This document shows positions 14,826-34,484 of a stretch of DNA of 64,000 nucleotides, piece after piece (positions within the stretch are counted from its first letter, which is position 1; the number at the start of each line of letters is the position of its first letter). The position numbers and the translations under genes are program-made. Origin of the DNA: a virus; the IMG/VR virus record IMGVR_UViG_3300045119_000180, positions 40,075-104,074 of that record; one strand, given 5' to 3'. The notes under the pieces are model-generated. The model did not search any database and had not been told where the DNA came from. It saw only the letters and a list, made by a program, of their open reading frames with translations.

Positions 14826-14899
14826 TGGCCTCTAGCATAACCGGTAATTGCGTCGTCCTGTTAAGACGAAGGATCTCTGTTCGAATCAGAGGGGGCCAG
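14826..14899 (+). tRNA. tRNA-Asn (GTT anticodon)
   Basis: Full cloverleaf. The acceptor TGGCCTC pairs with GGGGCCA (one G-T). The D-arm has a GG-containing loop. The anticodon stem TCGTC/GACGA has loop CTGTTAA, so the anticodon is GTT. The T-arm is CTCTG, TTCGAAT, CAGAG. Discriminator is G and CCA is not encoded. It lies between two coding genes in the same direction. Confidence 0.93.
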
Positions 14900-14909
14900 C
14901 TGAGGAGTT

Positions 14910-15641: not shown

Positions 15642-15966
15642 CACGAGCCATTTGATCCCGGGCAAGACCGGCGACGGTAGTAACGCCGACCCGCTTACGA
15701 CTGGCAAGTATTCACGGCAGGAAGTTGATGAATTGATTCAATTGGGTAAGGAGGCGAGAGGCGAATTAAAGCCGATGGTTCTTCCTGAAGAGTTTAAAAA
15801 TTGGGGTGAAGGAGACGTCAGTTCGACTCCTGTAGAAGACGATTATAAGTTCATAGATACAACTCCGTATGGCGTACAAGAGCGATTGACCAGTCTTGAG
15901 AATAAATTCGAAGAGCTTCAAAGCCGTTTGGTCAAGGCGTTTAAACACGCAGGATTTAACTTTTAA
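15592..15966 (+). CDS. Unknown protein with C-terminal coiled coil
   Basis: 124 aa with AGAGGT before the ATG. A disordered, Gly/Pro-rich front is followed by a heptad region (RLTSLENKFEELQSRLV) near residues 100-115. The next gene begins on its stop (TAATG). No family recognised. Confidence 0.6.
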   Translation: MTEKSNKAFGVNELKPNTSHLIPGKTGDGSNADPLTTGKYSRQEVDELIQLGKEARGELKPMVLPEEFKNWGEGDVSSTPVEDDYKFIDTTPYGVQERLTSLENKFEELQSRLVKAFKHAGFNF

Positions 15967-16751
15967 TGGATTTAAGCAAAGTCAGCATCGGGATTCGTAC
16001 TTTTTTACGCGATGAGTGCTTAAAAAATTCTATCGCAGCGATTCGCCGTACGATGCCTGACGCTAAAATGATAATTGCAGACTGCGGAGAGCATACGCAG
16101 GAAAAGTATGATCTTTATTCAGAGCTTAGCCGGGAAGGGCATTTGTGCTTTACGCTTCCATGGGATTCCGGATTTGGCTGTATGAGCAATTGTATTGCGA
16201 GCGCAGCAACTCGGCCCTATCTTTTGATTGGCAGTGATGATTTCGACTTTAATCCTCCGGAAGTAAGAAAAGGGATTGAGTCTTTCGTGGAGTGTTTGGA
16301 TAACTGGCCGACTTTAAGCGTTGTTAGCGGACGGGTCAATAATAAATTTTATGAGTATTACTTAGAAGACAAAGGCGACGAAATTAAAGAGTCGCCAGCT
16401 CTGTGGGGTATTTATGCCGCGGCAAATCAAATTATTCCCTGGCTCTATCCAATTGATCTGACGGTTAATTACTGTTTAGTTCGAAAAGAAGTATTTCAGA
16501 AAGTCCAATGGGATCCAGAGGCTAAGATAGGGCAAGGTGAACACGGTTCGTGGTTCGTGGATATCAAGCGAGCAGGTCTTAAAGTAGGTTGGATACCCGG
16601 AGTTAGCATTAGCGAACAGCCGAATCAGAACAGTGATCGATATCGTGAATTCCGTAATAGAGCTAGGAGCCCCGAAAGAAGTTGTTTTAAGAAACGCGGC
16701 ATTAAGAAGTATGTTTTAGGTTGCGGAACAGTCGACTATGAAGAGACGTAA
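15966..16751 (+). CDS. GT-A glycosyltransferase (GalNAc-transferase/GT2-like)
   Basis: 261 aa. VSIGIRTFLRD at the N-terminus, AKMIIADCG as the second nucleotide-binding strand, and IGSDDFDF as the DxD-type metal/sugar-nucleotide site near residues 92-99. This layout matches GT2-like transferases related to beta-1,4-GalNAc transferases. It opens the glycan operon and overlaps the following endonuclease gene. Donor and acceptor cannot be read from sequence. Confidence 0.75.
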   Translation: MDLSKVSIGIRTFLRDECLKNSIAAIRRTMPDAKMIIADCGEHTQEKYDLYSELSREGHLCFTLPWDSGFGCMSNCIASAATRPYLLIGSDDFDFNPPEVRKGIESFVECLDNWPTLSVVSGRVNNKFYEYYLEDKGDEIKESPALWGIYAAANQIIPWLYPIDLTVNYCLVRKEVFQKVQWDPEAKIGQGEHGSWFVDIKRAGLKVGWIPGVSISEQPNQNSDRYREFRNRARSPERSCFKKRGIKKYVLGCGTVDYEET

Positions 16752-17232
16752 GAAGTGTACTAAATGCGGAGAAATAAAGCACTTTTCTTGTTTTTCGCCG
16801 GACAAAAGGGATGAAAAAGGCCGTCTGCGTTGGCGAATGGGCGTTTGTACTGCTTGTAGGTCCGAAGGTTTTAAAAAGAAGTACTGGAACGACCCTGTGG
16901 CAGCAAGGAGAAATGCCAGGAAAAATAGGACCTCAAAAAAGATGAGGGACTGGAATTTAAGATTTGCTTATGGAATAACTCTATTGGAGTGGGAGGATAT
17001 TTTTACAAAGCAGGGCCGACAGTGTGCTATTTGTAAAAGAAAGAAACCAATTGGTCTAGGTTGGGCGACAGATCATAAAGGTTGGCATTGCAGAAGAGGT
17101 AAATTACGTAAAAGAATAAGAGCAATTTTATGTCAACATTGTAATACTCTTTTAGGCCAGGCAAGAGAGTCGGTAGATATTTTAAAAGCGGTAATTGCGT
17201 ACATAAGAAACAATAAATGGGCAAATTATTAA
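16738..17232 (+). CDS. Recombination endonuclease VII family nuclease
   Basis: 164 aa. An N-terminal zinc ribbon (CTKC ... CTAC) precedes an intact endonuclease VII core: YGITLLEWEDI, CAICKRKK, TDHKGWHC, LCQHCNTLLG. All four zinc cysteines are present, unlike the copy at 1289. It sits between two glycosyltransferase genes and overlaps both, consistent with a free-standing mobile nuclease. Confidence 0.85.
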   Translation: MKRRKKCTKCGEIKHFSCFSPDKRDEKGRLRWRMGVCTACRSEGFKKKYWNDPVAARRNARKNRTSKKMRDWNLRFAYGITLLEWEDIFTKQGRQCAICKRKKPIGLGWATDHKGWHCRRGKLRKRIRAILCQHCNTLLGQARESVDILKAVIAYIRNNKWANY

Positions 17233-17909
17233 TATCTATAAAATCATGCCGTCGCGACTGGATGCGCGGCGATCATGACGTCATTCGCTCGACGTGGGGC
17301 AAGGATGTTCCCGAAGGCGTTGATTTACGGTTCTTTATGGGCACGGAAAGTTATAGGCTATGTACCGACGGCGATGAAGAATGGTTGGATGTTAAAGACG
17401 ATTACGATTCACTCCCTCAAAAGGTTAAGGCTATTTTTAAATGGGCTTTAGAAAAACAATATGACTACATTTTCCTTGCGGACACGGATACGTTCGTTAT
17501 ACCAAAACGCCTTATTGCGCTTCCTTTTCAAGACTATGACTTATCTGGTCGGTTCGGGAAAATTAAGCCTATTGGCGAGACCTTTAGATATATTGACGGA
17601 CGAGATATTGTTTACGACCCCTGTTGGCCCTGGCCAAGCGGAGGGTGCGGTTATTTTGTATCGGCTAAAGGTGCCGATTATATTTTACGTACAGGATTTA
17701 CAGGCTGGGCCGAAGACATTCAGTCAGGCCAAGCACTCGGACCGCTGGAAAAACTAGGCTTGGTAAAGATAGGCGATCTAGAAGATCTCGAGTGTAAGGC
17801 ATCGTGGCATTTTCCGCGGTGGAAGTACAATCAGGAAGTTTACCATCCCCGATATGGTTGGCAAGAGAAGATGTATAAAGAGCATAATGAAAATAGCGAT
17901 AGTCATTAA
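17217..17909 (+). CDS. Galactosyltransferase-like glycosyltransferase (GT31-like)
   Basis: 230 aa. KLLISIKSCRRD, then RSTWG, and FLADTDTFV (DxD near residues 90-92) resemble the beta-1,3-galactosyltransferase fold. GGCGYFVSAKGAD and EDIQSG fit the acceptor side. It is paralogous to the next gene and overlaps it by 23 nt. The acceptor is unknown. Confidence 0.72.
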   Translation: MGKLLISIKSCRRDWMRGDHDVIRSTWGKDVPEGVDLRFFMGTESYRLCTDGDEEWLDVKDDYDSLPQKVKAIFKWALEKQYDYIFLADTDTFVIPKRLIALPFQDYDLSGRFGKIKPIGETFRYIDGRDIVYDPCWPWPSGGCGYFVSAKGADYILRTGFTGWAEDIQSGQALGPLEKLGLVKIGDLEDLECKASWHFPRWKYNQEVYHPRYGWQEKMYKEHNENSDSH

Positions 17910-18594
17910 ATCATGCCAGCGCGATAAATACGCCGGCTGCCATTGGGCAATTAGAGAGACGTATGCCAACACTCTGCCAGCTGGCGTAGATCTTTATTTT
18001 GTTATGGGCGGCCCTAGGATAGAACTGCCGTCAGAAATCTTAAAAGACGAATTATGGTTCGACGTAGACGACGGCTATTGGGAGCTACAGCCTAAAGTCA
18101 AATTGGCTTGTAAATATATAGTTGACAATAACTACGATTTTTGTTATTTTGCAGACACTGACAGTTATTTAATCGTGCAAGAATTGCTCAAATCCGGGTT
18201 CGAAAAGTACGACTTTTCAGGCGGCCATTTGTGCGGCCGTAATCACGGAGAGAATCAATTTGGCGTTAAATATCCGGCTTATAAAGACAGCCACGGAGCG
18301 ACATTGCCGCACCTTTATGTCTATCTGTCCGGAGGCGTAGGCTTTTTCGTGTCAAACAAGGCGGCTAAAGCATTGGCCGAGACGGATATGTACTTTCATT
18401 CAGAGGATGTCTGGGCCGGCCAAGTCATCGGCCCGTTTATAGAGCGTGGCGAGATGACAGCTAGTCTGCTGCCGTTCGTAGAGCATCATTCGGCCTGGCA
18501 TCTTAATTGTGGCTATTACGGCGGCGGACATACGGAACGGCTTAATGCCGGTGATGCAGTAAGGCGTAAGCATAAGGACCTTGGGTATATATAA
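17887..18594 (+). CDS. Galactosyltransferase-like glycosyltransferase, paralogue
   Basis: 235 aa. Same architecture as the previous gene: IAIVIKSCQRD, FADTDSYL, GGVGFFVSNKAA, EDVWAGQ. The ATG at 17887 is chosen over an upstream in-frame start because it aligns with the paralogue's N-terminus. The pair probably arose by tandem duplication and may add consecutive sugars. Confidence 0.72.
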   Translation: MKIAIVIKSCQRDKYAGCHWAIRETYANTLPAGVDLYFVMGGPRIELPSEILKDELWFDVDDGYWELQPKVKLACKYIVDNNYDFCYFADTDSYLIVQELLKSGFEKYDFSGGHLCGRNHGENQFGVKYPAYKDSHGATLPHLYVYLSGGVGFFVSNKAAKALAETDMYFHSEDVWAGQVIGPFIERGEMTASLLPFVEHHSAWHLNCGYYGGGHTERLNAGDAVRRKHKDLGYI

Positions 18595-18815
18595 TGAGTG
18601 AATTCATCGATGATGAAATCGAGCGGGCGGGATTGAGTATCAGTGCCCAAGCAGGGCAGTGGGTACGCGACAAGCTAGCCGAGGCGGGTATCAGCCAGGA
18701 AGAGATTGACCACATCATGCATGAAGCGGTTAAGGACGTGATTGTGTCGGCTGTATGTCCGTATTGTCAAGGATATAAGTTAACCCGCAAACCGTGTCCG
18801 TGTTGCGAAAGATAA
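18594..18815 (+). CDS. Small zinc-ribbon protein, unknown
   Basis: 73 aa. A helical acidic N-terminus and a C-terminal CPYC ... CPCC ribbon. It begins on the previous stop (TAATG). No family recognised. Confidence 0.6.
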   Translation: MSEFIDDEIERAGLSISAQAGQWVRDKLAEAGISQEEIDHIMHEAVKDVIVSAVCPYCQGYKLTRKPCPCCER

Positions 18816-18823
18816 AGGAGATT

Positions 18824-19624
18824 ATGCGCATCTTAGTTACAGGAAGTTCCAGCTACATTGCTTCAGGCGTTTTACCGCGGCTTTATAGGGCTTTTCCGAC
18901 GGCGCTGATCTCTTTATGCGATCTTAAGAACGGCCAGGATTTCGGCGAATTTAAAGGTCATCACTTCAACGTCGTACTACATATCGGCGCATTAAGTACG
19001 ATTGTCGACTCCGGTAGCAAGGCTGATTATATGCTGGACGTCAACGCTTTCCGAATCTTGAAGTTTCTACGTAATAACACGGTTGATAAAATCTTATTCC
19101 CGTCAACTGGAGGAGCTATTTATGGCAATAGGACGACGCCAGCTAAAGAGTCAGATGCTACTTGGAGCGGGTGTGTTAATCCTTACAGCCAGTCTAAGTA
19201 TATCGCTGAAAGGATTATTCGGGAATTATGCCACAATCATACGATTCTTAGGCTTGGTAACGTCTTTGGTGGTGATATGGATAGCCGGACAGAGGCGTTG
19301 GTTTTGACGCATTTTGCGCATGACAATCCAATTATTGTTTACGGTGGTGATCAGACCAGGGATTTCGTCCATCTAGACGTCGTTAGCGAAGCGTTCATTA
19401 AAGCTATCCAACTAGATGTCACCGGGACTTTTAATATCGCTAATGGCGAGTCTATCCGATTGATGGACCTAGCGGAGAAATTTTCGGCTTATCGTCAGGT
19501 GCCAATTGAAATGCGTCCGCACAGGCCTGAAGAGATGATTGATGTGGCGTTGGATGTCACGGCAGCCAAAAAGGCCGGATTGATTCCGAAGAAACAGAAG
19601 AACGATTATCTAGGGGTTCTTTAA
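18824..19624 (+). CDS. NAD-dependent sugar epimerase/dehydratase (extended SDR)
   Basis: 266 aa. A degenerate Rossmann turn ILVTGSSSYIASG, then PSTGGAIYG and NPYSQSKY with the catalytic YxxxK near residues 125-129, then RLGNVFG. This is the GalE/RmlB-type family that remodels nucleotide sugars. AAGGAG sits just before the ATG at 18824; the frame is open further upstream. In context it could epimerise or dehydrate a GDP- or UDP-sugar for the surrounding glycosyltransferases. Confidence 0.78.
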   Translation: MRILVTGSSSYIASGVLPRLYRAFPTALISLCDLKNGQDFGEFKGHHFNVVLHIGALSTIVDSGSKADYMLDVNAFRILKFLRNNTVDKILFPSTGGAIYGNRTTPAKESDATWSGCVNPYSQSKYIAERIIRELCHNHTILRLGNVFGGDMDSRTEALVLTHFAHDNPIIVYGGDQTRDFVHLDVVSEAFIKAIQLDVTGTFNIANGESIRLMDLAEKFSAYRQVPIEMRPHRPEEMIDVALDVTAAKKAGLIPKKQKNDYLGVL

Positions 19625-20238
19625 TGCCACAAACTTGGCCGCCTCAAACGGAATTGTGCGAATTAGCTACGAAATACGGTACAGATAAATACAATTGGCA
19701 TTCCTACACTCCACACTATCACCGCCTGCTTAACGACCGCCGCAACGAAGTCCGTAAAGTTCTGGAGATCGGTATTGGCGACCCGTCTAGTATGTCAGAT
19801 CCGACTGGCAAGCCTTACGTCCCCGGTGCCAGTTTGCGTATGTGGGCCGAATATTTCCCGAACGCCGAAATTTATTCTTTGGATAGTCAGGCTAATCTTC
19901 TGATCAACGAAGGCCGGATCCGTTCTTTCCAGTGCGACCAAGGCGACCGGCATAGTTTAGAAATGGCTATGCCAAAGCTAGGCGCGGGCTTTGATCTTAT
20001 CGTCGACGATGGCAGCCATGTTCCAGAGCATCAAGCGTTGACGGCTACAATGTACGTGCCGCTATTGGCGCCGAACGGCGTTTATATCATTGAGGACGTC
20101 TGGCTGTATCCCAGTCAGGTCGGTTGGTCCAAGGAGCCGTTCGGATTGAAACTGGAAGATATCCCGTATAAAACGGAAGTACTTTACGGCGAAGGCAATA
20201 ATGACGACAGATTGATTTTAATAAAGGCTGGCAGATGA
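19624..20238 (+). CDS. Class I SAM methyltransferase (sugar O-methyltransferase-like)
   Basis: 204 aa. LEIGIGDPSS as the SAM-binding motif I near residue 48, YSLDSQ at the second strand, and DLIVDDGSH near 120. The DDGSH motif and overall pattern recall macrolide-sugar O-methyltransferases. It starts on the previous stop. Likely methylates a sugar made by this operon (inference). Confidence 0.7.
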   Translation: MPQTWPPQTELCELATKYGTDKYNWHSYTPHYHRLLNDRRNEVRKVLEIGIGDPSSMSDPTGKPYVPGASLRMWAEYFPNAEIYSLDSQANLLINEGRIRSFQCDQGDRHSLEMAMPKLGAGFDLIVDDGSHVPEHQALTATMYVPLLAPNGVYIIEDVWLYPSQVGWSKEPFGLKLEDIPYKTEVLYGEGNNDDRLILIKAGR

Positions 20239-20414
20239 ATTGGCGTCTTAATGTAGCTAGTTTACTAGCGATTGTGTTAACACTTATTTATGGCTCAGGA
20301 TTGTGTTTTGCTGTAGCTCATAAAGATAAATTAGGAATTATGGTGTTCGGTGTTGCGGTCCTTATTTGTGGTTTTATGTCTTGGGCATCGGGTTTTGCAA
20401 GGCCAAAACCATGA
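20235..20414 (+). CDS. Small two-helix membrane protein, unknown
   Basis: 59 aa with two hydrophobic segments (VASLLAIVLTLIYGSGL and LGIMVFGVAVLICGFMSW). ATGA overlaps at both ends make it a clear operon member. Function unknown. Confidence 0.6.
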   Translation: MNWRLNVASLLAIVLTLIYGSGLCFAVAHKDKLGIMVFGVAVLICGFMSWASGFARPKP

Positions 20415-21289
20415 AAATCATCCAGTGCAACGACTGCAATCCGGAATTGATTCAACCTCAATATGCATCGTTTAAAAAGCATCTTCAAGACGACTTTCAA
20501 ATGGTTATCTGTAACAGTCTAGAGATGGCTAGAGACCCGCGAAAGTGCCAAGAAGTATTAGACGTATGTCATTTGTTAGGTATAGAAACTGTCCAGGCGA
20601 AACGCGACAAATCAATTGAACTGTATCGCAATACCAACTTTACTTACGGTAGCCCAGAGCCGTTCTTTTCTCCGGAAGGCCGCTTCTGGACGCCCGGCAA
20701 TGCCGGCAATTATCTTATGCAATGGTCATGGGAAAAGATCGTCTGCAAACTTAATGGTCCTATTTGCTATACGCATAGCGATGTCTTTCTAATCGAGCCT
20801 ATTAGATTTACAGACTATCTAAAAGACTATCAAATATGTTCAATTCTGCCGAATAAGCCAGCCCAAAAAGGTCATGGCTTTATGCAATATCTTTGGGAGC
20901 CGCTATTGTTGGTCGATATGGATAGGCTGCCCAGCCCGGAAACAATGATTTGGTGGCCTAGCGAAGTTGAAAACGAATGGACGGATACCGGAGGCAGGAC
21001 GTATTACTATCTACGTGACCATCCGGAATTAAAGGTTCTAGAATTAGGCCAGTCGAGCAGTATAATAGGCGATGCGCCTAATGACGACGATTTTAAGGAT
21101 CCGACAGTAGACTTTCATCCAACAAGATATCGCTTCATTCATTTCCCAGATAAACGGGCGTTTCATTATATGTCAGGGACCAGGTGGTGTACAGATTCGG
21201 AGCACGGGTGGAATTGGCCAAAAGAAAAGGCTGATGAATACCACCGACGAAAGATGGCTTGGACTCGTAAACTAGCAGGTATTGAATGA
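20411..21289 (+). CDS. Putative GT-A type glycosyltransferase
   Basis: 292 aa. MKIIQCNDC at the start and GPICYTHSDVFLIEPI in the middle, where HSDVF takes the place of a DxD site. The start at 20411 overlaps the membrane-protein stop (ATGA) and is preferred over an in-frame ATG 45 nt upstream. The family is not one I can name. Context among glycan genes supports the call. Confidence 0.55.
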   Translation: MKIIQCNDCNPELIQPQYASFKKHLQDDFQMVICNSLEMARDPRKCQEVLDVCHLLGIETVQAKRDKSIELYRNTNFTYGSPEPFFSPEGRFWTPGNAGNYLMQWSWEKIVCKLNGPICYTHSDVFLIEPIRFTDYLKDYQICSILPNKPAQKGHGFMQYLWEPLLLVDMDRLPSPETMIWWPSEVENEWTDTGGRTYYYLRDHPELKVLELGQSSSIIGDAPNDDDFKDPTVDFHPTRYRFIHFPDKRAFHYMSGTRWCTDSEHGWNWPKEKADEYHRRKMAWTRKLAGIE

Positions 21290-22245
21290 ATGTAGCTCTT
21301 ATTGGCGCGGGTAAAATTGGTAGAATCCGGGCGGAAGTTATTCGTCAGTCTGAATCACGATTGGTGGCTGTTCATGATGCCAACGATATTGCTGCAGCTA
21401 AATTAGGTCTTCCGGTTTCTTTGGACTTTATTATGACGGCTAAAGACATTAATGCAGTCGTAATTTGTACGCCTACTAAATACCACATGCCTATCGCGGT
21501 ATCGGCGTTACACGCCGGTAAGCACGTTCTTTGTGAAAAGCCGCTAGGGCGGACATTACAAGAAGCTAAACTGGTAGTTCAAAATGTTTTGCCAGGGCAG
21601 ATTCTGCATTCCGGATTTAATTACCGCCATTTAAGCCATGTAAAACGAGCGAAGAAGATTATCGAAAGCGGCGTTCTCGGTGATTTGATGTTCTTTCGTT
21701 CCCGTTTTGGGAACGGCGGCCGACCGGGGTATGGAAAAGAATGGTGTACGCAGAAGGATCTTGGTGGTGGCGGCGTAACGATCGAGCAGGCAATTCATGT
21801 CTTTGATCTTATTTCGTTTCTTTTCGGAGACCCTGAGCGAATTGTAGCAAATATGGATCTTTGCTATCACGGTTTTCCCGATACTGAAGATAATGTCTTT
21901 TGTATGATTAAAACGTCTGGCGGTACAGCCACCGTGCATGTTAGCTGGACGCAATGGACGAATCTCTTTGAAGTAGAGATATTCGGCACAGAAGGTTATC
22001 TAAGGCTGGAAGGTCGTGACGGCTCTTATGGCCCGCCAAGGCTGTATCACGGCATCAGGAACGATGACCATACGCGGCCTTTCGAGCATGAAATTGACCT
22101 GCCGGATGAAAGTAGTTGGGCTTTAGACTGGGCTGAATTCGAACAAGAAGTAGAATCCGGAATTAATGGTGCGTATGGATTAATGGCGCAGCGAATGGTT
22201 GAAGCTGCTTATAAAAGTGTAGATAAAGGCTGGGTTAATATATGA
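21286..22245 (+). CDS. Gfo/Idh/MocA-family oxidoreductase
   Basis: 319 aa. The Rossmann motif ALIGAGKIG at the N-terminus, then VVICTPTKYH and the family signature CEKPLGR near residues 85-91. The second half is the alpha/beta dimer domain. These enzymes oxidise or reduce sugars or nucleotide sugars with NAD(P). It is flanked by ATGA overlaps in the glycan operon. Confidence 0.82.
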   Translation: MNVALIGAGKIGRIRAEVIRQSESRLVAVHDANDIAAAKLGLPVSLDFIMTAKDINAVVICTPTKYHMPIAVSALHAGKHVLCEKPLGRTLQEAKLVVQNVLPGQILHSGFNYRHLSHVKRAKKIIESGVLGDLMFFRSRFGNGGRPGYGKEWCTQKDLGGGGVTIEQAIHVFDLISFLFGDPERIVANMDLCYHGFPDTEDNVFCMIKTSGGTATVHVSWTQWTNLFEVEIFGTEGYLRLEGRDGSYGPPRLYHGIRNDDHTRPFEHEIDLPDESSWALDWAEFEQEVESGINGAYGLMAQRMVEAAYKSVDKGWVNI

Positions 22246-22877
22246 AAGCCTGGATAGTCGGAGCATCCGGAACAATCGGCGGTGCTATTGCGGATAGGTT
22301 TCATAACGAAGGCGTTGAGGTCTTTAGGAAAAAGGTGGAAATAACGGATTATTATGCCATATCATCAACGGCTAATGCCGTCCGACCCGACATTGTAGTT
22401 AACTGCGCAGGCGTTTATATTTACGGAGCTTTTGGCGGTTCTATATTAGATTGGACGAGTGTTATAGATGTAAATCTTACAGGTAGTTTTCATCTTACTA
22501 GGGCTGTTCTGCCTAACATGCTTGCTAAAGGTGGTGGAAAGATTATTCACCTATCAGGCGGGGGTGCTGCTTATGGTCGGCGGCTTTATTCTGCCTATGC
22601 GGCCTCAAAAGCTGGCTTGGTAAGGTTCGTGGAGTGCGTAGCCGAAGAAGTTGAACAATTTAACGTCCAGATCAATTGTATCGCGCCAGGCTCTGTTAAG
22701 AGCAAGATGAATCCTAAAGGCACTGAAACGCCTCAAAAAGCTGTCGAGCTGGCAATGTATCTAGCCTCGCCTGAATCGAGTCACGTAACCGGCCGGTTAA
22801 TACACGTCAACGAAGACTATAGAAATAAGACTGTTTGGGGCGACGAAGACGGCAAGCTTCGAAGGATGCCTTTATGA
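22242..22877 (+). CDS. Short-chain dehydrogenase/reductase
   Basis: 211 aa. IVGASGTIGGA as the cofactor loop, VVNCAG, and YAASKAG as the catalytic YxxxK near residues 113-117, with IAPGSVKSKM downstream. It probably interconverts a keto-sugar intermediate with the neighbouring oxidoreductase; the substrate is unknown. Confidence 0.8.
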   Translation: MKAWIVGASGTIGGAIADRFHNEGVEVFRKKVEITDYYAISSTANAVRPDIVVNCAGVYIYGAFGGSILDWTSVIDVNLTGSFHLTRAVLPNMLAKGGGKIIHLSGGGAAYGRRLYSAYAASKAGLVRFVECVAEEVEQFNVQINCIAPGSVKSKMNPKGTETPQKAVELAMYLASPESSHVTGRLIHVNEDYRNKTVWGDEDGKLRRMPL

Positions 22878-23167
22878 AAGAATGTAATAGCCAGCCTGTA
22901 CTCAAAAGCTGCCCTGAGTGCCAGAGTAAGAAATTGACGTACGGTGGGTATGGGAATACCTTGCTCGGATGTTATAGTCCACCGGGACACGACCACGACA
23001 ATAATTGTAAAATACATTATTGGAAGTGCGAAAATGGGCATGATATCAGGGAAAGACAGATTAATGTTTGCCCGGCTGAAGGGTGCAATTGGACATCTGG
23101 ACAAGATTGTTTTTGCTCCCCTTTAGGCGCGTGGATAGCTAAAATGGGTCCAGGGATGTATCAATGA
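22874..23167 (+). CDS. Cysteine-rich zinc-binding protein, unknown
   Basis: 97 aa with about nine cysteines in CPEC, CENGHD, CPAEGC and CFC, suggesting two or three zinc sites. The ATG at 22874 overlaps the previous stop, and its own end overlaps the kinase start. No family recognised. Confidence 0.6.
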   Translation: MKECNSQPVLKSCPECQSKKLTYGGYGNTLLGCYSPPGHDHDNNCKIHYWKCENGHDIRERQINVCPAEGCNWTSGQDCFCSPLGAWIAKMGPGMYQ

Positions 23168-24141
23168 TAATTGTCAAAAGTCCGATGCGGATTACACTTG
23201 GTGGAGGCGGTACGGATCTGCCGTCGTATGCTGACAAATACGGAAGTTCAGTCCTTTCTGCAGCTATAAATAAATACGTTTATGTCACGGTTAACGAATC
23301 GTTCCGTAATCGAATTACGCTGAAGTATTCAAAGATTGAAGACGTTCAAACACCGGACGAAATCGAGCATCCGGTTATTAAAGCAGCTTTGAAGTTTTTA
23401 AAAATTGATGGCTCAGTCGACATTGACAGCATTTCAGATATTCCCGCAGGAACGGGGCTCGGTTCGTCCGGTAGTTTCACGACTGCACTTTTACAGGCTC
23501 TTCATTTGTTTAAGCGGGAAACAATAACCAAATGCCAATTGGCGGAGCAAGCCTTTCATATCGAACATGACATTCTTAATCAGCATTGCGGTCGACAAGA
23601 CCAATATATTGCCGCTGTCGGGGGTTTGACCATCCTCCGTTTCGGCTTAGATGATATTGGTTATAGGCCCTTGGACATAAGCCGAGAAACTTTAGCTAAT
23701 CTAGAAGAAGGGCTGATGCTTTTCTTTACTGGTTACTCCAGATTGGCCACTGGTATTCTTAGTGAGCAGGACATTAGATTACAGCAGGACGACGCCAGAA
23801 TAACCGAAAATTTGCATCAGATAAAGGATCTAGGAAGGGCTACTCAGATAGCATTAACGCACGGAGATCTCAACGAATTTTCCAATTTAATGCTTCATCA
23901 TTGGGATCTTAAACGGGTTCGTTCTACGGGTACTACCAATGACGAAATCGACAGATTGTACGAATTAGGGCTTGCAAACGGCGCATTAAGTGGTAAATTA
24001 GTAGGAGCAGGTGGAGGCGGCTTTCTATTGTTTTATACGGAAGATCGTCAAAGGCTTCGTTCAAGTATGCTTAAAGCCGGATTAAGAGAGGTCAGAATAA
24101 GATTCGATTTTGAAGGCACATCGATCGTGGCTCATATATGA
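23164..24141 (+). CDS. hddA: GHMP kinase, heptose 7-phosphate kinase (HddA-like)
   Basis: 325 aa. SPMRITLGGGGTDLP at the N-terminus and the GHMP ATP loop PAGTGLGSSGSF near residues 94-105 are typical of D-glycero-alpha-D-manno-heptose 7-phosphate kinases. VGAGGGGFLL is the C-terminal GHMP motif. It would make the 1,7-bisphosphate in the GDP-heptose branch. A GmhA/GmhB-like fusion lies one gene away and a transaldolase follows, which strongly supports the heptose reading over other GHMP kinases. Confidence 0.8.
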   Translation: MIIVKSPMRITLGGGGTDLPSYADKYGSSVLSAAINKYVYVTVNESFRNRITLKYSKIEDVQTPDEIEHPVIKAALKFLKIDGSVDIDSISDIPAGTGLGSSGSFTTALLQALHLFKRETITKCQLAEQAFHIEHDILNQHCGRQDQYIAAVGGLTILRFGLDDIGYRPLDISRETLANLEEGLMLFFTGYSRLATGILSEQDIRLQQDDARITENLHQIKDLGRATQIALTHGDLNEFSNLMLHHWDLKRVRSTGTTNDEIDRLYELGLANGALSGKLVGAGGGGFLLFYTEDRQRLRSSMLKAGLREVRIRFDFEGTSIVAHI

Positions 24142-24359
24142 TATACTCAATATTTTTCGTCTTGTTTTGGTTAATATGTTATTTTCTTTCGTTCGGGTCG
24201 ATAGTCGCATATTTTGACGATCAGGATGGTGAATGGCCGGGTACAACTAAACGATACGCACTGGCAGTTGCGTGCTTGTTTAGTCTTTTCGGCCCGTTCA
24301 GTTTGTTTGTTATGTGGGTTCACGGAGATCTTTTTAAACACGGTTGGCGGCTGATATGA
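24138..24359 (+). CDS. Small membrane protein, unknown
   Basis: 73 aa with two hydrophobic spans (YSIFFVLFWLICYFLSFG and YALAVACLFSLFGPFSLFV) separated by an acidic loop. ATGA overlaps on both sides. Its position inside the heptose genes suggests membrane anchoring or export, but this is not shown. Confidence 0.6.
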   Translation: MIYSIFFVLFWLICYFLSFGSIVAYFDDQDGEWPGTTKRYALAVACLFSLFGPFSLFVMWVHGDLFKHGWRLI

Positions 24360-25402
24360 TATTTACACGAAAATATCTCAACGAAGTGATAGAAATTAGC
24401 AGACAAATAGACGAAGATCAGATTACAAAGGCTGTCGATATCCTAGCCAACCTGCAGGGCCGGCTGTTCATATTGGGCGTAGGCGGCAGCGCGGCCAATT
24501 GTAGCCACGCCGTTAATGACTTCAGAAAGATCGCCAATATTGAGGCTTATGCGCCGACGGATAACATTGCGGAGCTGACGGCCAGGACGAACGATGACGG
24601 CTGGCCATCCGTCTTTGAGAACTGGCTAAAGGTTAGCAAGCTGAACAGTCAAGACGTTCTTCTAGTTCTTTCGGTCGGGGGCGGAAGCGCTACAACCAGC
24701 AAGAATCTCCTTCTGGCAATGGAGCTAGCAGTTGAAAAGAAAGCAAAGATCATTTCGGTTGTTGGCCGAAAAGATGGTGCGGCCGGCCGATTGTCGGATG
24801 TTTGCATTCTTATCCCTAACGTTTCAGAAGAACGAGTTACGCCGCATACAGAGTCGTTTCAAGCTATCGTGTGGCATCTTATAGTCAATCACCCGAAACT
24901 GAAGGCCGGACGGAAGAACAAAGCGGTCTTTCTAGACCGAGATGGAACGCTTAATGCGTTGTTTGATCAACGAGCCCCGAGGAATTTAAATGAGTTTCTC
25001 CTTTTCCCGGATGCTCTACCAGCGCTCAACGAATTAAAACAAGCTGGGTTTAAATTGATCGTGGTAACTAATCAACCAGACATCTCTCGCGGGGAAAACA
25101 CATCAGAAGCTGTCAACGCTATTAATCAAGAATTGATGAACAAATTGCCGGTTGATCATGTTTATCTGTGCTCTCATTCGGACGAGGATAACTGTTTGTG
25201 CCGAAAACCGAAGACTGGTATGTATACACTAGCTGTGGATAAGTACAATTTGGATATAACTAAATGCTATATGATTGGGGATACGTCGCGGGATGTAGAC
25301 GCGGGGTACAACGCCGGGTGTAAAAAGACATTTCAATTAAGAGACGGAATAAACTTAAAAAGAATTGTAAAAGAAATACTGAAGGATTCTAATGGACATT
25401 AA
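24356..25402 (+). CDS. GmhA-GmhB-like fusion: heptose isomerase plus HAD phosphatase
   Basis: 348 aa. Residues 1-185 are a SIS domain with GVGGSAANCSHAV near 38-50 and LVLSVGGGSATT near 99-110, like sedoheptulose 7-phosphate isomerase (GmhA). Residues 190-348 are a HAD phosphatase with FLDRDGTLN near 195-203, VTNQPDIS near 240, a zinc-binding Cys/His cluster (CSHSDEDNCLCRKP) and MIGDTSRDVDAG, as in GmhB. The two enzymes are usually separate genes, and the kinase acting between them is HddA upstream. The ATG at 24356 overlaps the previous stop. Confidence 0.82.
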   Translation: MIFTRKYLNEVIEISRQIDEDQITKAVDILANLQGRLFILGVGGSAANCSHAVNDFRKIANIEAYAPTDNIAELTARTNDDGWPSVFENWLKVSKLNSQDVLLVLSVGGGSATTSKNLLLAMELAVEKKAKIISVVGRKDGAAGRLSDVCILIPNVSEERVTPHTESFQAIVWHLIVNHPKLKAGRKNKAVFLDRDGTLNALFDQRAPRNLNEFLLFPDALPALNELKQAGFKLIVVTNQPDISRGENTSEAVNAINQELMNKLPVDHVYLCSHSDEDNCLCRKPKTGMYTLAVDKYNLDITKCYMIGDTSRDVDAGYNAGCKKTFQLRDGINLKRIVKEILKDSNGH

Positions 25403-26093
25403 AATCTTTGCTGACGGCGCCGATAAAAAGACGATTCTTGAACTGGCTAACAATCCTTTGATCCGTGGCCTGACGACCAATCCAACATTGATGCGCAAGG
25501 CCGGCATTAAGGACTATAAAGCGTTCTGCAAGGATCTTTTGCCCGCAGTCAGCCATCTGCCTATTTCCTTCGAAGTCTTTGAAGACAGCCCGTTGTTGAT
25601 CTACCACCAAGCCTTGGAGATTGCTTCGTGGGGCAGTAATGTCTACGTCAAAATCCCAGTAACAAATACTCAAAGACGCGAGATGTATCCGATTATTAAC
25701 CAACTCAGCCGAGAGGGTGTCAAGGTTAACGTCACAGCGATTATGACTCTTGACCAGGTTCTGGATTCTGCAGAAGCGCTGAGCCATTCAACGCCAAGTT
25801 ACATTTCGGTCTTCGCCGGTCGAATCGCGGATACCGGCAGGGATCCCATTCCGCGGATGGCTAAAGCGCTTAAGATCATCCGCGATATCAGCCCGCAGAC
25901 GGAATTGATCTGGGCCAGCCCTCGTGAAGTATTAAATATTGTTCAAGCCGATGAAATTGGCTGTGACATCATAACGGCTACGAAAGACATCCTGGATAAG
26001 CTGCCGCTTCTAGGTAAGAACCTTGATGACTATAGTCTCGACACCGTTAAGATGTTTTATAAAGATGCCCAAGAGTCCGGGTATAAGCTATGA
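25392..26093 (+). CDS. Transaldolase (TalC/fructose-6-phosphate aldolase-like)
   Basis: 233 aa. GLTTNPTLM near residues 30-38, VYVKIPVT with the Schiff-base Lys near 88, and SVFAGRIAD near 138-146 are transaldolase/FSA hallmarks. Short transaldolases are known phage metabolic genes. Here it directly follows the isomerase-phosphatase fusion. Transaldolase can form sedoheptulose 7-phosphate, the substrate of that isomerase, so it probably feeds the heptose branch (inference). Overlaps the previous gene by 11 nt. Confidence 0.82.
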   Translation: MDIKIFADGADKKTILELANNPLIRGLTTNPTLMRKAGIKDYKAFCKDLLPAVSHLPISFEVFEDSPLLIYHQALEIASWGSNVYVKIPVTNTQRREMYPIINQLSREGVKVNVTAIMTLDQVLDSAEALSHSTPSYISVFAGRIADTGRDPIPRMAKALKIIRDISPQTELIWASPREVLNIVQADEIGCDIITATKDILDKLPLLGKNLDDYSLDTVKMFYKDAQESGYKL

Positions 26094-26905
26094 TTACTAC
26101 GATGCTTCAAGGGGGCATGAGTAATCAACAATTCCAATATGCGATGGGCTACGCTCGTGCCAAGGATCTAGGAGTCGAGTTGGAGTTGGACATCACTCTT
26201 CTGCAGAATGACAGGATGCGGAAATACTCAATGGGTCTGTGGGCCGGAGTTAAAGAGAATTTGACGTTTGGTAAGCGGTCGACAGTTAATGAAAGGCAGA
26301 TGCCTTACGATATAGATTTGGTGACGGACATTAAAGACGGCGATGTATTACGTGGATATTTTCAGGATGAGAGGTATTTTAAGCAGTATCGCAAAGAACT
26401 GTTGGAGATATTTCGCCCGAAGCAAATGCTATCTGATCGAGGGTTTGAAACAGTAAAGAAGATTTATCAAAAAGGGCACCAAAGTACTTTTCTTACTGTA
26501 CGCCGAACGGACTATCTTAATTCAGACTATCACGGTGTTCTGGACATGGCGTACTATTTAGAAGCTTGCCGGATAGTGGCTGAGCACGTTCCGCCATACT
26601 TCTTCGTGTTTTCTGATGAGCCCGAATGGTGCAAGAAGAATTTTCAAATCCCATATCCTTTCGAAGTAGTAGGAACGTATGACCAGACCAATCACGATCA
26701 TCTAGGCCGTGAAGACGAAGACTTGTGGCTGATGAGCCGCTGTAAAAACGCTGTGCTAGCAAACTCCTCGTTTTCATTCTGGGGTGCTTGGATGTCTCCT
26801 TACGATACAGAGAACCGCATGGTAGTTGGTCCTAAGAAATGGTTTGCCAACGCACCAGGGGTCGACTCTAGCGAAGTTATTCCGAAACGGTGGACGGCGA
26901 TATGA
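26090..26905 (+). CDS. GT11 family alpha-1,2-fucosyltransferase-like
   Basis: 271 aa. The GT11 motifs are in order: GGMSNQQFQYAMG near residues 8-20 (usually GGLGNQMFQYA), VRRTDY near 142, FVFSDEPEWCK near 170, and ANSSFSFWGAWMS near 222-234. These enzymes transfer fucose from GDP-fucose, GDP-L-galactose or similar sugars. Given the GDP-heptose-type genes upstream, a related GDP-sugar donor is possible. Confidence 0.82.
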   Translation: MITTMLQGGMSNQQFQYAMGYARAKDLGVELELDITLLQNDRMRKYSMGLWAGVKENLTFGKRSTVNERQMPYDIDLVTDIKDGDVLRGYFQDERYFKQYRKELLEIFRPKQMLSDRGFETVKKIYQKGHQSTFLTVRRTDYLNSDYHGVLDMAYYLEACRIVAEHVPPYFFVFSDEPEWCKKNFQIPYPFEVVGTYDQTNHDHLGREDEDLWLMSRCKNAVLANSSFSFWGAWMSPYDTENRMVVGPKKWFANAPGVDSSEVIPKRWTAI

Positions 26906-31989: not shown

Positions 31990-32916
31990 ATGAACATCAA
32001 ACAGCAGTCTGAAATTTACATACGTCTTTTGACTAGTCGGAAGCGTAATCCGGCTAAACCTTCAACTCTTAATAGCTATAATTGCTATTTAAGACGGTGG
32101 ATCGTGCCAGAAATAGGTTCTATTGATTTAATAGACTACGAAAATGGCGCGATGAAAGACTTTATAGTTAAACTGGATGAAGCCGGACTGTCCCCGGCTA
32201 CCATTGCAGGTATTCAGAATTGTGTTAAGGGTATTGTTTCCAGTGCAGTAGACGAAAACGGTAATGAAATTTATGCTAGAAAATGGAATACTGAGTTCAT
32301 TGATGCTCCGCCGGTTGTAGCAAAAGATCAAAAAGCACCTACAATAACGTCACAAAAGCTCCAGGAAGCGATATCTAAAGCCGAGGCTCCGTTCGGTCAA
32401 CTGTTGGCTTTTCTAGCCGGATCGGGGCTGAGAGTGGGCGAGATGCAGGCTTTAAAGGTAGGTCCACAGGTTAAATCAAGTTATTGGGATCCCGATGAAA
32501 GTAAGCTGGTCGTCCGGATGACGATTTACCGCGGTAAAGAGCAAACGACCAAAACGCCAGCTGGCAACCGGGAAGTGGATATCTGCAGCACATTGAACGA
32601 CCTGCTGAAGGGGTTAAACCGTAAAGACGGCGAATGGTTGTTCCACGGCCGTACAAATGGCGTTATCAGGCCGATGACGGTATACGAAAAGGCGAAACAA
32701 CTGGAGATTCCGCCTGTTCATAGCCTTCGAAGGTTCCGATTGACGTATCTTGAGAATTCCGGGGCGCCTATGAGTCTGGTTAAGTTCTGGGCCGGCCATG
32801 CAACAGGGGATATCACGGAGCGGTATATCAAGTCGCGGGAGAATATCCAACTGAGAAAAGATTGGGTTGAGAAGATAGGATTAGGATTCAACTTAAAAGG
32901 AGAACAAAATGACTAG
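31990..32916 (+). CDS. Tyrosine recombinase (integrase), short form
   Basis: 308 aa. Core-binding domain at residues 1-110, catalytic domain after. Catalytic residues: Arg in GSGLRVGEM near 147, His and Arg in VHSLRRFR near 243-246, His in WAGHATGD near 265, Tyr in ERYIK near 275. It lacks the roughly 100-residue N-terminal region present in the convergent second recombinase, to which it is clearly related (shared RKW..E.IDAP and RRFR segments). Likely leaderless. It points at the attP candidate and probably catalyses integration or excision. Confidence 0.88.
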   Translation: MNIKQQSEIYIRLLTSRKRNPAKPSTLNSYNCYLRRWIVPEIGSIDLIDYENGAMKDFIVKLDEAGLSPATIAGIQNCVKGIVSSAVDENGNEIYARKWNTEFIDAPPVVAKDQKAPTITSQKLQEAISKAEAPFGQLLAFLAGSGLRVGEMQALKVGPQVKSSYWDPDESKLVVRMTIYRGKEQTTKTPAGNREVDICSTLNDLLKGLNRKDGEWLFHGRTNGVIRPMTVYEKAKQLEIPPVHSLRRFRLTYLENSGAPMSLVKFWAGHATGDITERYIKSRENIQLRKDWVEKIGLGFNLKGEQND

Positions 32917-33098: not shown

Positions 33099-33278
33099 TA
33101 GGCCAAGTAGGCCAATTGAAGGCCATATCCGAGACTTAAGTGATTGCAAATCCTCGAGTTATGTGTTCTTAAGTCTCGATATGGCGGAAGCACGGGAAAC
33201 TGTCTGACCGAATAACTAGTTTCTTTTCTGTATCTAAGCGGACTTTCGTAGTCCGATGAGTTGGCCAGGTTGGCCAGG
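33099..33278. other. Candidate phage attachment site (attP)
   Basis: Between the ends of two convergent recombinase genes. Left arm: TAGGCCAAGTAGGCCAA (33099-33115), a tandem repeat. Right arm: TTGGCCAGGTTGGCCAGG (33261-33278), tandem and inverted relative to the left. In the middle a long inverted repeat encloses GATTGCAAATCC (33142-33153), matching the anticodon-loop region of bacterial tRNA-Cys (TTGCAAA with GCA anticodon). The layout fits arm sites around a crossover core. The host site is inferred. Confidence 0.6.
33122..33185. repeat. Long inverted repeat, 18-19 bp arms
   Basis: GCCATATCCGAGACTTAAG (33122-33140) and CTTAAGTCTCGATATGGC (33168-33185) are complementary with one extra C in the left arm; the 27-nt centre contains CTCGAG. 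No T-run follows either arm, so it is not an ordinary terminator. It may be the core recombinase binding site. Confidence 0.88.
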
Positions 33279-34484
33279 TAAAGTAAATCCCATACCAAGC
33301 CGTTCAGCCCACTCAAGCCTTATTGGTCGATCATTCAAAAGATGCACATACGTCTCGGAGATGTGCGTCTGCGCGTGCCCGGACCAGAAGTGCTGGAGCG
33401 ACTTTGGTACGGGGGACAGGTCAATGTGCTTCATCCGGAACCGGCGGAAGATGTTAAAGCCGCCGATCGGTAGGTTCAACTGTTTCAGTACCGGGTGCAG
33501 GTGGTCGTTGAGAAGGTTCGCCTGACTCAGTTGTGTCCCTTTCGTGTTCTGGAACAACAGGCCAGATGCCCTCGAGCCAACGTGGTTGCGTAGCATGTCT
33601 GCGAGTTCCGTGCACAGGTCTACTTCCCTTTCACCGTTCTTGGTTTTGAGGTACGGCTGGATAACACCTCGTTTGGCTTTCTGGTTGATGACGAGGGTTC
33701 TGAAGTCACCCGATATGTGACGAATTTCGAGTCCAAGAGCCTCTCCAACTCTAAGAGGTCCGCATCCGGCAAGGAGCGCATATAAGACTCCAATCTGGCC
33801 TGGGCTATTTCGGATAATTGCCGAGATTCCTTCGGCGTCAACTGTAGGTTGATTTTGGTCTTTGACGATTGGCGCATCGATATATTCCTCTTTCCACTTT
33901 CTTGGGAATAGTTCTTCACCGTTGTCGTCGATCGCAGATGCAACGACGAGTTTGGCGATAAGCGTATAGTCGCGGATTGAAGACGCGGCAAGGTTGGCGC
34001 CGACGAAGTATTCAACCAATTCCTTCATCGTACGGTTGGAGATAGCAGAGAGCAGTTCGGGGCCAATTCGGGGGTAGAGCCACTTGTCAAGTGTGTAGCG
34101 GCGGTTAGATATGGTTGTAGCTTCAAGCGGGTTGCGTTTGCGATTGGCCAACAACTTTAGCCATTGTTCGCCTTGCTGCTGGAAGGTGACATTAGACGTC
34201 GATTCGATGAAGGTTTGGTTAGAGTTGATACCGAGAGTTTCGAGCCGCTGACTAGCAGCCCTAGTTGCGATCGTCCTGGTCCGGCAGGGTCCGAGAGATA
34301 CAACTTCCCGCCGGCGGGATCCGTTCGCGTCTCGCCAAAATTGCAGATATGCTGGTGCGATTGGATCCCAGATGTCCGTAATCCTACGTCCTTTCTGAAA
34401 TACATAACCCTTTTGGTAAGAACGCCTTGCCAAAGAAGGCCCTCGCTTTCTGCGAGGAATTGCAATCGCGGACAACTCTATCAT
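33234..34484 (-). CDS. Tyrosine recombinase (integrase), long form with N-terminal domain
   Basis: 416 aa. Residues 1-95 are a basic N-terminal region likely to bind arm sites, 96-210 the core-binding domain, and the rest the catalytic domain. Arg lies in GCGPLRVGEAL; the second box reads GFNIFRRFR with Asn where His of HxxR is expected; FWSGHA and ETYVHL supply His and Tyr. It is paralogous to the plus-strand recombinase and convergent with it. The right arm repeats lie in its 3' end. The His-to-Asn change may weaken catalysis. Confidence 0.85.
   Translation of the reverse strand: MIELSAIAIPRRKRGPSLARRSYQKGYVFQKGRRITDIWDPIAPAYLQFWRDANGSRRREVVSLGPCRTRTIATRAASQRLETLGINSNQTFIESTSNVTFQQQGEQWLKLLANRKRNPLEATTISNRRYTLDKWLYPRIGPELLSAISNRTMKELVEYFVGANLAASSIRDYTLIAKLVVASAIDDNGEELFPRKWKEEYIDAPIVKDQNQPTVDAEGISAIIRNSPGQIGVLYALLAGCGPLRVGEALGLEIRHISGDFRTLVINQKAKRGVIQPYLKTKNGEREVDLCTELADMLRNHVGSRASGLLFQNTKGTQLSQANLLNDHLHPVLKQLNLPIGGFNIFRRFRMKHIDLSPVPKSLQHFWSGHAQTHISETYVHLLNDRPIRLEWAERLGMGFTLPGQPGQLIGLRKSA

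What the first reader, a model, noticed from the sequence alone, without database searches (positions are those of the whole stretch)
23164..26093. Phage-encoded route from transaldolase to a heptose 1-phosphate
Seen: an HddA-like GHMP kinase, a fused GmhA-like isomerase plus GmhB-like phosphatase, and a transaldolase, all in one overlapping operon with fucosyltransferase-like and other glycosyltransferase genes. Known: GmhA, HddA and GmhB convert sedoheptulose 7-phosphate to D-glycero-alpha-D-manno-heptose 1-phosphate, and transaldolase can supply sedoheptulose 7-phosphate. Inferred: the phage carries its own precursor-to-heptose module for a surface glycan, with the nucleotidyltransferase (HddC) left to the host. 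The isomerase-phosphatase fusion is itself unusual.
Basis: partly seen in the sequence, partly recalled or inferred. Interest (0 to 1): 0.85.

Follow-up and report, generated by a model that had tools for sequence, protein, structure and literature searches.

The report
Phage-borne long-chain sugar module
A phage from an uncultivated source carries four enzymes that should build an unusual seven- or, more likely, eight-carbon sugar phosphate; the same gene set forms a widespread but apparently undescribed bacterial sugar cassette and recurs in many uncultivated phages.

Summary
The genes are real: GHMP kinase 23164-24141, SIS+HAD fusion 24356-25402 and transaldolase 25392-26093, in one overlapping operon of a 104-kb phage record. 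The heptose assignment is weaker than claimed. The isomerase domain has the GmhA fold but not its active site: GmhA residues D61/H64/E68/Q175/H178/H183 are N/H/D/E/Q/H here. The same NHDEQH set occurs in 81 of 83 cellular and 77 of 78 viral relatives, while 10 of 10 canonical GmhA genes from genomes with the cassette keep DHEQHH. The isomerase, kinase and phosphatase all miss the curated heptose-enzyme cut-offs. The genes match a bacterial cassette with nucleotidyltransferase, Gfo/Idh and SDR genes. Transaldolase lies within 3.5 kb of this isomerase in 49 of 51 well-flanked loci, but near 0 of 10 canonical gmhA genes, which argues against ordinary sedoheptulose 7-phosphate. The gene set equals the lincosamide GDP-octose pathway (LmbR/N/P/K/O/M/L/Z), so an octose 1-phosphate is the better guess, although Lmb sequences could not be compared. 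At least 213 viral contigs encode the isomerase subfamily, and a 142-kb unrelated phage shares little beyond this glycan island.

The parts
23164..24141 (+). GHMP sugar kinase, HddA-like (325 aa)
   Evidence: NF049969 HddA 172 bits (cut-off 600, not met); PDB relatives are HddA/WcbL-type kinases, e.g. 3k85 at 4.7e-45; 51-53% identical to the cassette kinases of Rhizobium and Lawsonia plasmids; sister to viral L097 at 60%
24138..24359 (+). 73-aa ORF, probably membrane-bound, sitting where bacterial cassettes have the nucleotidyltransferase
   Evidence: sequence read directly; bacterial order GHMP-NT-SIS
24356..24919 (+). SIS isomerase domain of the fusion, NHDEQH subfamily
   Evidence: PF13580 above cut-off; AlphaFold2 pLDDT 90 and Foldseek best matches GmhA, TM about 0.73-0.80; active-site table
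24920..25402 (+). HAD-IIIA phosphatase domain of the fusion
   Evidence: TIGR01656 125.6 bits (cut-off 84.15 met), GmhB TIGR00213 96.8 (cut-off 149.6 not met); DRDGT, TNQ, CxH-CxC zinc motif and GDxxxD present
25392..26093 (+). Transaldolase, TIGR02134 type (233 aa)
   Evidence: 308.8 bits against cut-off 281.95; Lys87 (Schiff base) and Phe141 invariant in 143 relatives; 62-63% identical to Rhizobium cassette transaldolase
21286..22245 (+). Gfo/Idh/MocA oxidoreductase, probable module member
   Evidence: PF01408 and PF22725; 45% to the Gfo/Idh gene beside the same module in L097; about 34-35% to bacterial cassette Gfo/Idh
22242..22877 (+). Short-chain dehydrogenase, probable module member
   Evidence: PF00106; 44% to L097 SDR; 35-40% over part to cassette SDR
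18794..19624 (+). NAD-dependent sugar epimerase/dehydratase, shared with the L097 island
   Evidence: PF01370; 54% to L097
19624..20238 (+). Methyltransferase, shared with the L097 island
   Evidence: 57% to L097; Methyltransf_24 weak
26090..26905 (+). GT11 fucosyltransferase-like glycosyltransferase
   Evidence: PF01531 2.7e-19; 38% to L097
26890..27528 (+). FkbM-family methyltransferase
   Evidence: TIGR01444 46.6 bits, above cut-off
15966..21289 (+). Upstream glycosyltransferase genes (15966, 17217, 17854, 20366) of the same glycan island
   Evidence: Galactosyl_T PF01762 for 17217 and, below the cut-off, 17854; homologues of 15966, 17217 and 17854 in the L097 island

Best explanation
The genes are the early part of a bacterial surface-glycan cassette carried by a phage. 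Step 1 (inferred): transaldolase moves a three-carbon unit from fructose 6-phosphate (or sedoheptulose 7-phosphate) onto an aldose phosphate, most likely ribose 5-phosphate, giving an octulose 8-phosphate. Step 2 (inferred): the SIS half of the fusion isomerises the ketose to an aldose phosphate. Step 3 (inferred): the GHMP kinase phosphorylates C1. Step 4 (inferred): the HAD half of the fusion removes the terminal phosphate, leaving the sugar 1-phosphate. A nucleotidyltransferase, absent from the record and so presumably the host's, would activate it. Phage Gfo/Idh, SDR and epimerase enzymes may modify it, and phage glycosyltransferases and methyltransferases place it in a glycan of the infected or lysogenised cell. 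Shown here: the genes, their architecture, the distinct isomerase subfamily, the conserved cassette, the missing nucleotidyltransferase and the recurrence in phages. Not shown: substrates, chain length, product.
For: Same genes side by side in Rhizobium and Lawsonia plasmids and across many phyla. Transaldolase within 3.5 kb of the SIS gene in 49/51 loci, and kinase, NT, HAD and TAL together in 39/51, against 0/10 transaldolases near canonical gmhA. NHDEQH signature in 81/83 cellular and 77/78 viral relatives, DHEQHH in 10/10 canonical GmhA from 20 cassette-bearing genomes; 15 of those 20 genomes have a second transaldolase. Fusions link neighbours: NT-HAD (L034), NT-SIS (L072), HAD-TAL (L106), SIS-HAD (L073 and window). 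The published lincosamide octose set is transaldolase LmbR, C8 isomerase LmbN, kinase LmbP, phosphatase LmbK, guanylyltransferase LmbO, epimerase LmbM, dehydrogenase LmbL, oxidoreductase LmbZ (PMC4351081); LmbR uses fructose 6-P or sedoheptulose 7-P plus ribose 5-P (PMC5854111). Phe141 fits a transaldolase rather than a fructose-6-phosphate aldolase (residue rule from own knowledge).
Against: No Lmb sequence could be reached, so the octose link rests on gene content only. By sequence the kinase and phosphatase resemble heptose enzymes most. Two of the four GmhA zinc ligands are kept and the other two changes (E to D, Q to E) are mild, so sedoheptulose 7-phosphate isomerase activity is not excluded. 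In five of 20 genomes (four Legionella, one other gammaproteobacterium) the cassette transaldolase is the only one found. D61/H64/E68 column agreement is partly built into the search patterns; the Q175/H178/H183 positions are not.
Confidence: 0.5

Rival explanations
1. [quoted passage not shown]
For: Best-scoring curated names are HddA, GmhB-type HAD-IIIA and GmhA; the kinase resembles solved heptose kinases; GmhA fold; two cultured phages carry annotated HddA plus phosphoheptose isomerase (PMC7378029).
Against: All three miss equivalog cut-offs; isomerase active site differs consistently from canonical GmhA, often in the same genome; canonical gmhA genes are not paired with transaldolase; the cassette is also in Bacillota and Chloroflexota, which lack LPS heptose (general knowledge).
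Confidence: 0.25
2. Another long-chain aldose: a heptose with different stereochemistry (for example D-gluco) or a sugar from a third aldose-phosphate acceptor, built by the same four steps.
For: Transaldolase acceptor and isomerase stereochemistry cannot be read from sequence; the changed isomerase site would fit changed stereochemistry; Gfo/Idh and SDR partners vary across the cassette.
Against: A heptose would not need its own transaldolase; no named precedent with this gene set.
Confidence: 0.2
3. The transaldolase is a stand-alone auxiliary metabolic gene that boosts the host pentose phosphate pathway, as TalC is thought to do in cyanophages, and merely sits beside a sugar operon.
For: Transaldolases are common in phages (481 records).
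Against: Nearly all those phage transaldolases are the TalC/FSA-like kind at about 30% identity; this one overlaps the fusion gene, is of the cassette type and nests with cassette transaldolases (SH-aLRT 81); constant pairing with the SIS gene and a HAD-TAL fusion.
Confidence: 0.05

Closest known systems
Bacterial EPI-UDH-SDR-GFO-GHMP-NT-SIS-HAD-TAL cassette (found here; e.g. Lawsonia plasmid NC_020130, Rhizobium plasmids NZ_CP032695 and NZ_CP104159)
   Same: Orthologous kinase (51-53%), isomerase (52-56%), phosphatase (45% to Rhizobium), transaldolase (55-63%), with Gfo/Idh and SDR genes beside them
   Different: Phage lacks the nucleotidyltransferase and nucleotide-sugar dehydrogenase, fuses SIS to HAD, and has more diverged Gfo/Idh and SDR genes
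Lincosamide GDP-octose pathway (LmbR, LmbN, LmbP, LmbK, LmbO, LmbM, LmbL, LmbZ)
   Same: Same list of enzyme types, including a dedicated transaldolase
   Different: No aminotransferase (LmbS) was seen in the phage island; glycan rather than antibiotic context; sequences not compared
[quoted passage not shown]
   Same: Isomerase, GHMP kinase, HAD phosphatase fold and order of steps
   Different: Isomerase active site differs; curated cut-offs not met; dedicated transaldolase; no HddC in the phage
Heptose-type gene pairs in cultured phages Cr30 and SynMITS9220M01
   Same: HddA-like kinase next to a SIS isomerase inside a phage glycan region
   Different: Isomerase signature xHDEHH, no transaldolase of this type beside it

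Membership tests
GmhA (sedoheptulose 7-phosphate isomerase) | SIS_2 fold of the GmhA kind | tested here: met
   PF13580 over cut-off; AF2 pLDDT 90; Foldseek best matches are GmhA structures
GmhA (sedoheptulose 7-phosphate isomerase) | Zinc ligands H64, E68, Q175, H183 plus D61 (PMC5705639: the four ligands are completely conserved among GmhA orthologues) | tested here: not met
   H, D, E, H and N in the window; H64 and H183 kept, E68D, Q175E, D61N changed
GmhA (sedoheptulose 7-phosphate isomerase) | Curated equivalog score (TIGR00441, 209 bits) | tested here: not met
   47.9 bits
HddA (heptose 7-phosphate kinase) | Curated equivalog score (NF049969, 600 bits) | tested here: not met
   172.3 bits, but the best model by far
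GmhB (heptose bisphosphate phosphatase) | Curated score (TIGR00213, 149.6; NF050049, 250) | tested here: not met
   96.8 and 75.5 bits
HAD-IIIA histidinol-phosphatase-type domain (TIGR01656) | Curated score 84.15 and catalytic/zinc motifs | tested here: met
   125.6 bits; motifs read
Transaldolase TIGR02134 | Curated score 281.95, Schiff-base lysine | tested here: met
   308.8 bits; Lys87 in 143/143
GDP-heptose pathway | HddC or another sugar-1-phosphate nucleotidyltransferase encoded with it | tested here: not met
   no PF00483, PF01467 or cassette-NT match in the 104-kb record, which may be incomplete
Lincosamide octose pathway | Gene set transaldolase + isomerase + kinase + phosphatase + guanylyltransferase | tested here: inconclusive
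   four of five types in the phage, all five in bacterial cassettes; set taken from PMC4351081
Lincosamide octose pathway | Orthology of LmbR/LmbN/LmbP/LmbK by sequence | not testable with these tools
   no Streptomyces producer genome could be reached
Lincosamide octose pathway | Ribose 5-phosphate as acceptor, octose product | not testable with these tools
   needs enzyme assay

The most novel reading that the evidence does not exclude
A lincosamide-like octose pathway is a common, undescribed way to make a C8 sugar for bacterial surface glycans. Uncultivated phages have taken it up repeatedly, in two formats: T4-like phages with their own CTP-transferase-like enzyme, and phages like this one that borrow the host's nucleotidyltransferase. 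This phage has welded isomerase and phosphatase into one protein.
Probability: 0.4. Interest if true: 0.82.

Novelty: new variant of a known kind. Interest (0 to 1): 0.62.

Why it matters
Many bacteria and viruses appear to carry a dedicated route to a long-chain sugar that annotation currently calls 'heptose', and the library searched holds no description of it. If the sugar is an octose, it would link the origin of the lincosamide sugar to ordinary surface-glycan chemistry, predict unrecognised C8 sugars in bacterial and phage-modified glycans, and give a four-enzyme test that one laboratory could run. It also warns against reading phage SIS/GHMP pairs as LPS heptose genes.

Tried and rejected
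Early reading that three of the four GmhA zinc ligands were lost: rejected after re-counting residues (H183 is kept; one search supersedes the HDEQ label). Automatic 'FUSED' flags were too lax: only L073 has one frame over both domains. Viral-contig scans with single window proteins found nothing; only the profile search worked. The transaldolases on the Streptomyces, Ligilactobacillus and Treponema plasmids are not in the cassette. The joint SIS+HAD alignment (A3) misaligned and was not used for structure prediction; only the SIS domain was modelled. Paper searches for the cassette or for phage heptose/transaldolase modules gave no description of it. The papers reporting LmbR/LmbN and LmbK/LmbO are not held.
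Full report
WHAT IS THERE. The window is bases 40075-104074 of a 104,074-base virus record. The record has a terminase large subunit, a primase-type protein and family A DNA polymerase pieces, a phage integrase and a GH108 lysozyme, so it is a phage and possibly temperate. The named genes are at the stated coordinates: GHMP kinase 23164-24141, SIS plus HAD in one frame from the ATG at 24356 to 25402 (348 aa; the TTG at 24344 is an alternative start), and transaldolase 25392-26093. A 73-aa, probably membrane-bound ORF at 24138-24359 overlaps the kinase stop and the fusion start. Upstream lie Gfo/Idh/MocA (21286), SDR (22242), epimerase (18794), methyltransferase (19624) and glycosyltransferases. 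Downstream lie a GT11 fucosyltransferase-like gene and an FkbM methyltransferase.

WHAT THE FAMILIES SAY. Transaldolase meets its curated cut-off (TIGR02134, 308.8 bits against 281.95). The kinase's best model is HddA but at 172 bits against 600; the SIS domain scores 47.9 against 209 for GmhA; the HAD domain scores 96.8 against 149.6 for GmhB, while passing the broader TIGR01656. So the heptose names hold only at superfamily level.

A BACTERIAL CASSETTE. A protein search of plasmids found the same genes side by side. Rhizobium jaguaris and Rhizobium sp. CB3060 have epimerase, nucleotide-sugar dehydrogenase, SDR, Gfo/Idh, GHMP, nucleotidyltransferase, SIS, HAD, transaldolase in this order; the Lawsonia plasmid has SIS, HAD, transaldolase and then dehydrogenase, SDR, Gfo/Idh, GHMP, nucleotidyltransferase. 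Identities to the phage are 51-53% (kinase), 52-56% (isomerase), 45% (Rhizobium phosphatase) and 55-63% (transaldolase). Where 3.5 kb of flank exists on both sides, transaldolase is within 3.5 kb in 49 of 51 loci, HAD in 48, nucleotidyltransferase in 45, kinase in 43 and all four in 39. Ten canonical gmhA loci taken from genomes that also hold the cassette have no such transaldolase nearby. Fusions join several pairs of these genes: NT-HAD in Lachnospiraceae such as L034, NT-SIS in L072, HAD-TAL in viral L106, SIS-HAD in L073 and in the window. This is good evidence that they serve one pathway.

THE ISOMERASE IS NOT CANONICAL GmhA. PMC5705639 states that zinc ligands H64, E68, Q175 and H183 are completely conserved among GmhA orthologues and that mutating any of them significantly reduces activity; D61A leaves 6%. 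At positions D61/H64/E68/Q175/H178/H183 the window, 81 of 83 cellular and 77 of 78 viral relatives read NHDEQH, while ten canonical GmhA proteins from genomes with the cassette read DHEQHH (examples of both kinds in one genome). Part of the D61/H64/E68 agreement is built into the search patterns; the Q175, H178 and H183 positions are free of that. The fold is still GmhA's: AlphaFold2 pLDDT 90, top Foldseek matches GmhA at TM about 0.73-0.80. Two ligands are kept and two changed conservatively, so a metal-dependent aldose-ketose isomerase is likely, with another substrate or stereochemistry. In 15 of 20 cassette-bearing genomes there is a second transaldolase.

WHICH SUGAR. A cell with a pentose phosphate pathway already holds sedoheptulose 7-phosphate, so a cassette that almost always brings its own transaldolase probably needs a ketose phosphate that is not a common metabolite. 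The published precedent is lincosamide biosynthesis: transaldolase LmbR (fructose 6-P or sedoheptulose 7-P plus ribose 5-P gives an octulose; PMC5854111), C8 isomerase LmbN, C8 kinase LmbP, C8 phosphatase LmbK, guanylyltransferase LmbO, epimerase LmbM, dehydrogenase LmbL, oxidoreductase LmbZ (PMC4351081 table 2; PMC12945683). The bacterial cassette holds the same enzyme types, and the phage holds four of the first five. I therefore favour an octose 1-phosphate (about 0.5) over ordinary heptose (0.25) or another long-chain aldose (0.2). This is inference from gene content: no Lmb sequence was reachable.

THE MISSING STEP. No PF00483, PF01467 or cassette nucleotidyltransferase match exists in the whole record. 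The slot it occupies in bacteria is taken by the small ORF. The related phage L097 (142 kb) also lacks both kinds of nucleotidyltransferase. Host supply is the simplest reading, but neither record is known to be complete.

PHAGES. A profile scan of viral contigs gave 213 relatives. Of the best 80, 38 carry T4-type RNase H nearby; 31 of these also have a CTP-transferase-like gene (PF01467) and a group-1 glycosyltransferase in the module. The window phage is a separate lineage: its transaldolase falls with bacterial cassettes (SH-aLRT 81) and its kinase is sister to that of L097 (support 100, 60% identity). L097 and the window record share 13 proteins by BLAST, 10 of them inside this glycan island; the L097 SIS protein (60%), missed by that ORF picker, is a further one. 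Backbones otherwise differ, so the island moves between unrelated phages. In L097 the SIS gene is not fused and no HAD gene of this kind was found. No cultured phage among 50,697 matched a T4-like SIS protein of this subfamily, and the L097 SIS found only weak matches. Cultured phages Cr30 and SynMITS9220M01 have HddA-like kinase plus isomerase pairs with a different signature, so phage 'heptose' genes as such are known (PMC7378029).

VERDICT. The interpretation needs two changes: this is a phage copy of a widespread bacterial cassette, and its sugar is probably not ordinary heptose.

Noticed in passing
L114, L128, L132, L135, L162 (viral contigs): T4-like uncultivated phages carry AdoMet decarboxylase, a CTP-transferase-like gene, SIS, HAD, transaldolase, glycosyltransferase and GHMP kinase close together beside T4-type RNase H; they could make and use their own activated sugar, possibly for glycan or DNA modification.
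   Followed up: partly
L097 (IMGVR_UViG_3300047539_000078) and window 15966-26905: Two otherwise unrelated phages share one glycan island (10 of 13 BLAST-shared proteins), including epimerase, methyltransferase, GT11, Gfo/Idh and SDR genes.
   Followed up: yes
L013, L014, L025 and L029 genomes (Legionella): The cassette transaldolase is the only transaldolase found in these genomes, so it may also serve central metabolism there.
   Followed up: partly
window 31990-32916 and 33234-34484: Two integrase-like genes on opposite strands near the island (the second below Pfam cut-off) suggest a temperate phage and possible lysogenic conversion.
   Followed up: partly
record bases 12700-46000 and window 16738-17232: Several HNH/endonuclease VII-like genes are scattered through the phage record, one of them (Endonuclease_7) inside the glycan island.
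   Followed up: no
window 14826-14900: A tRNA-Asn gene lies just upstream of the island.
   Followed up: no
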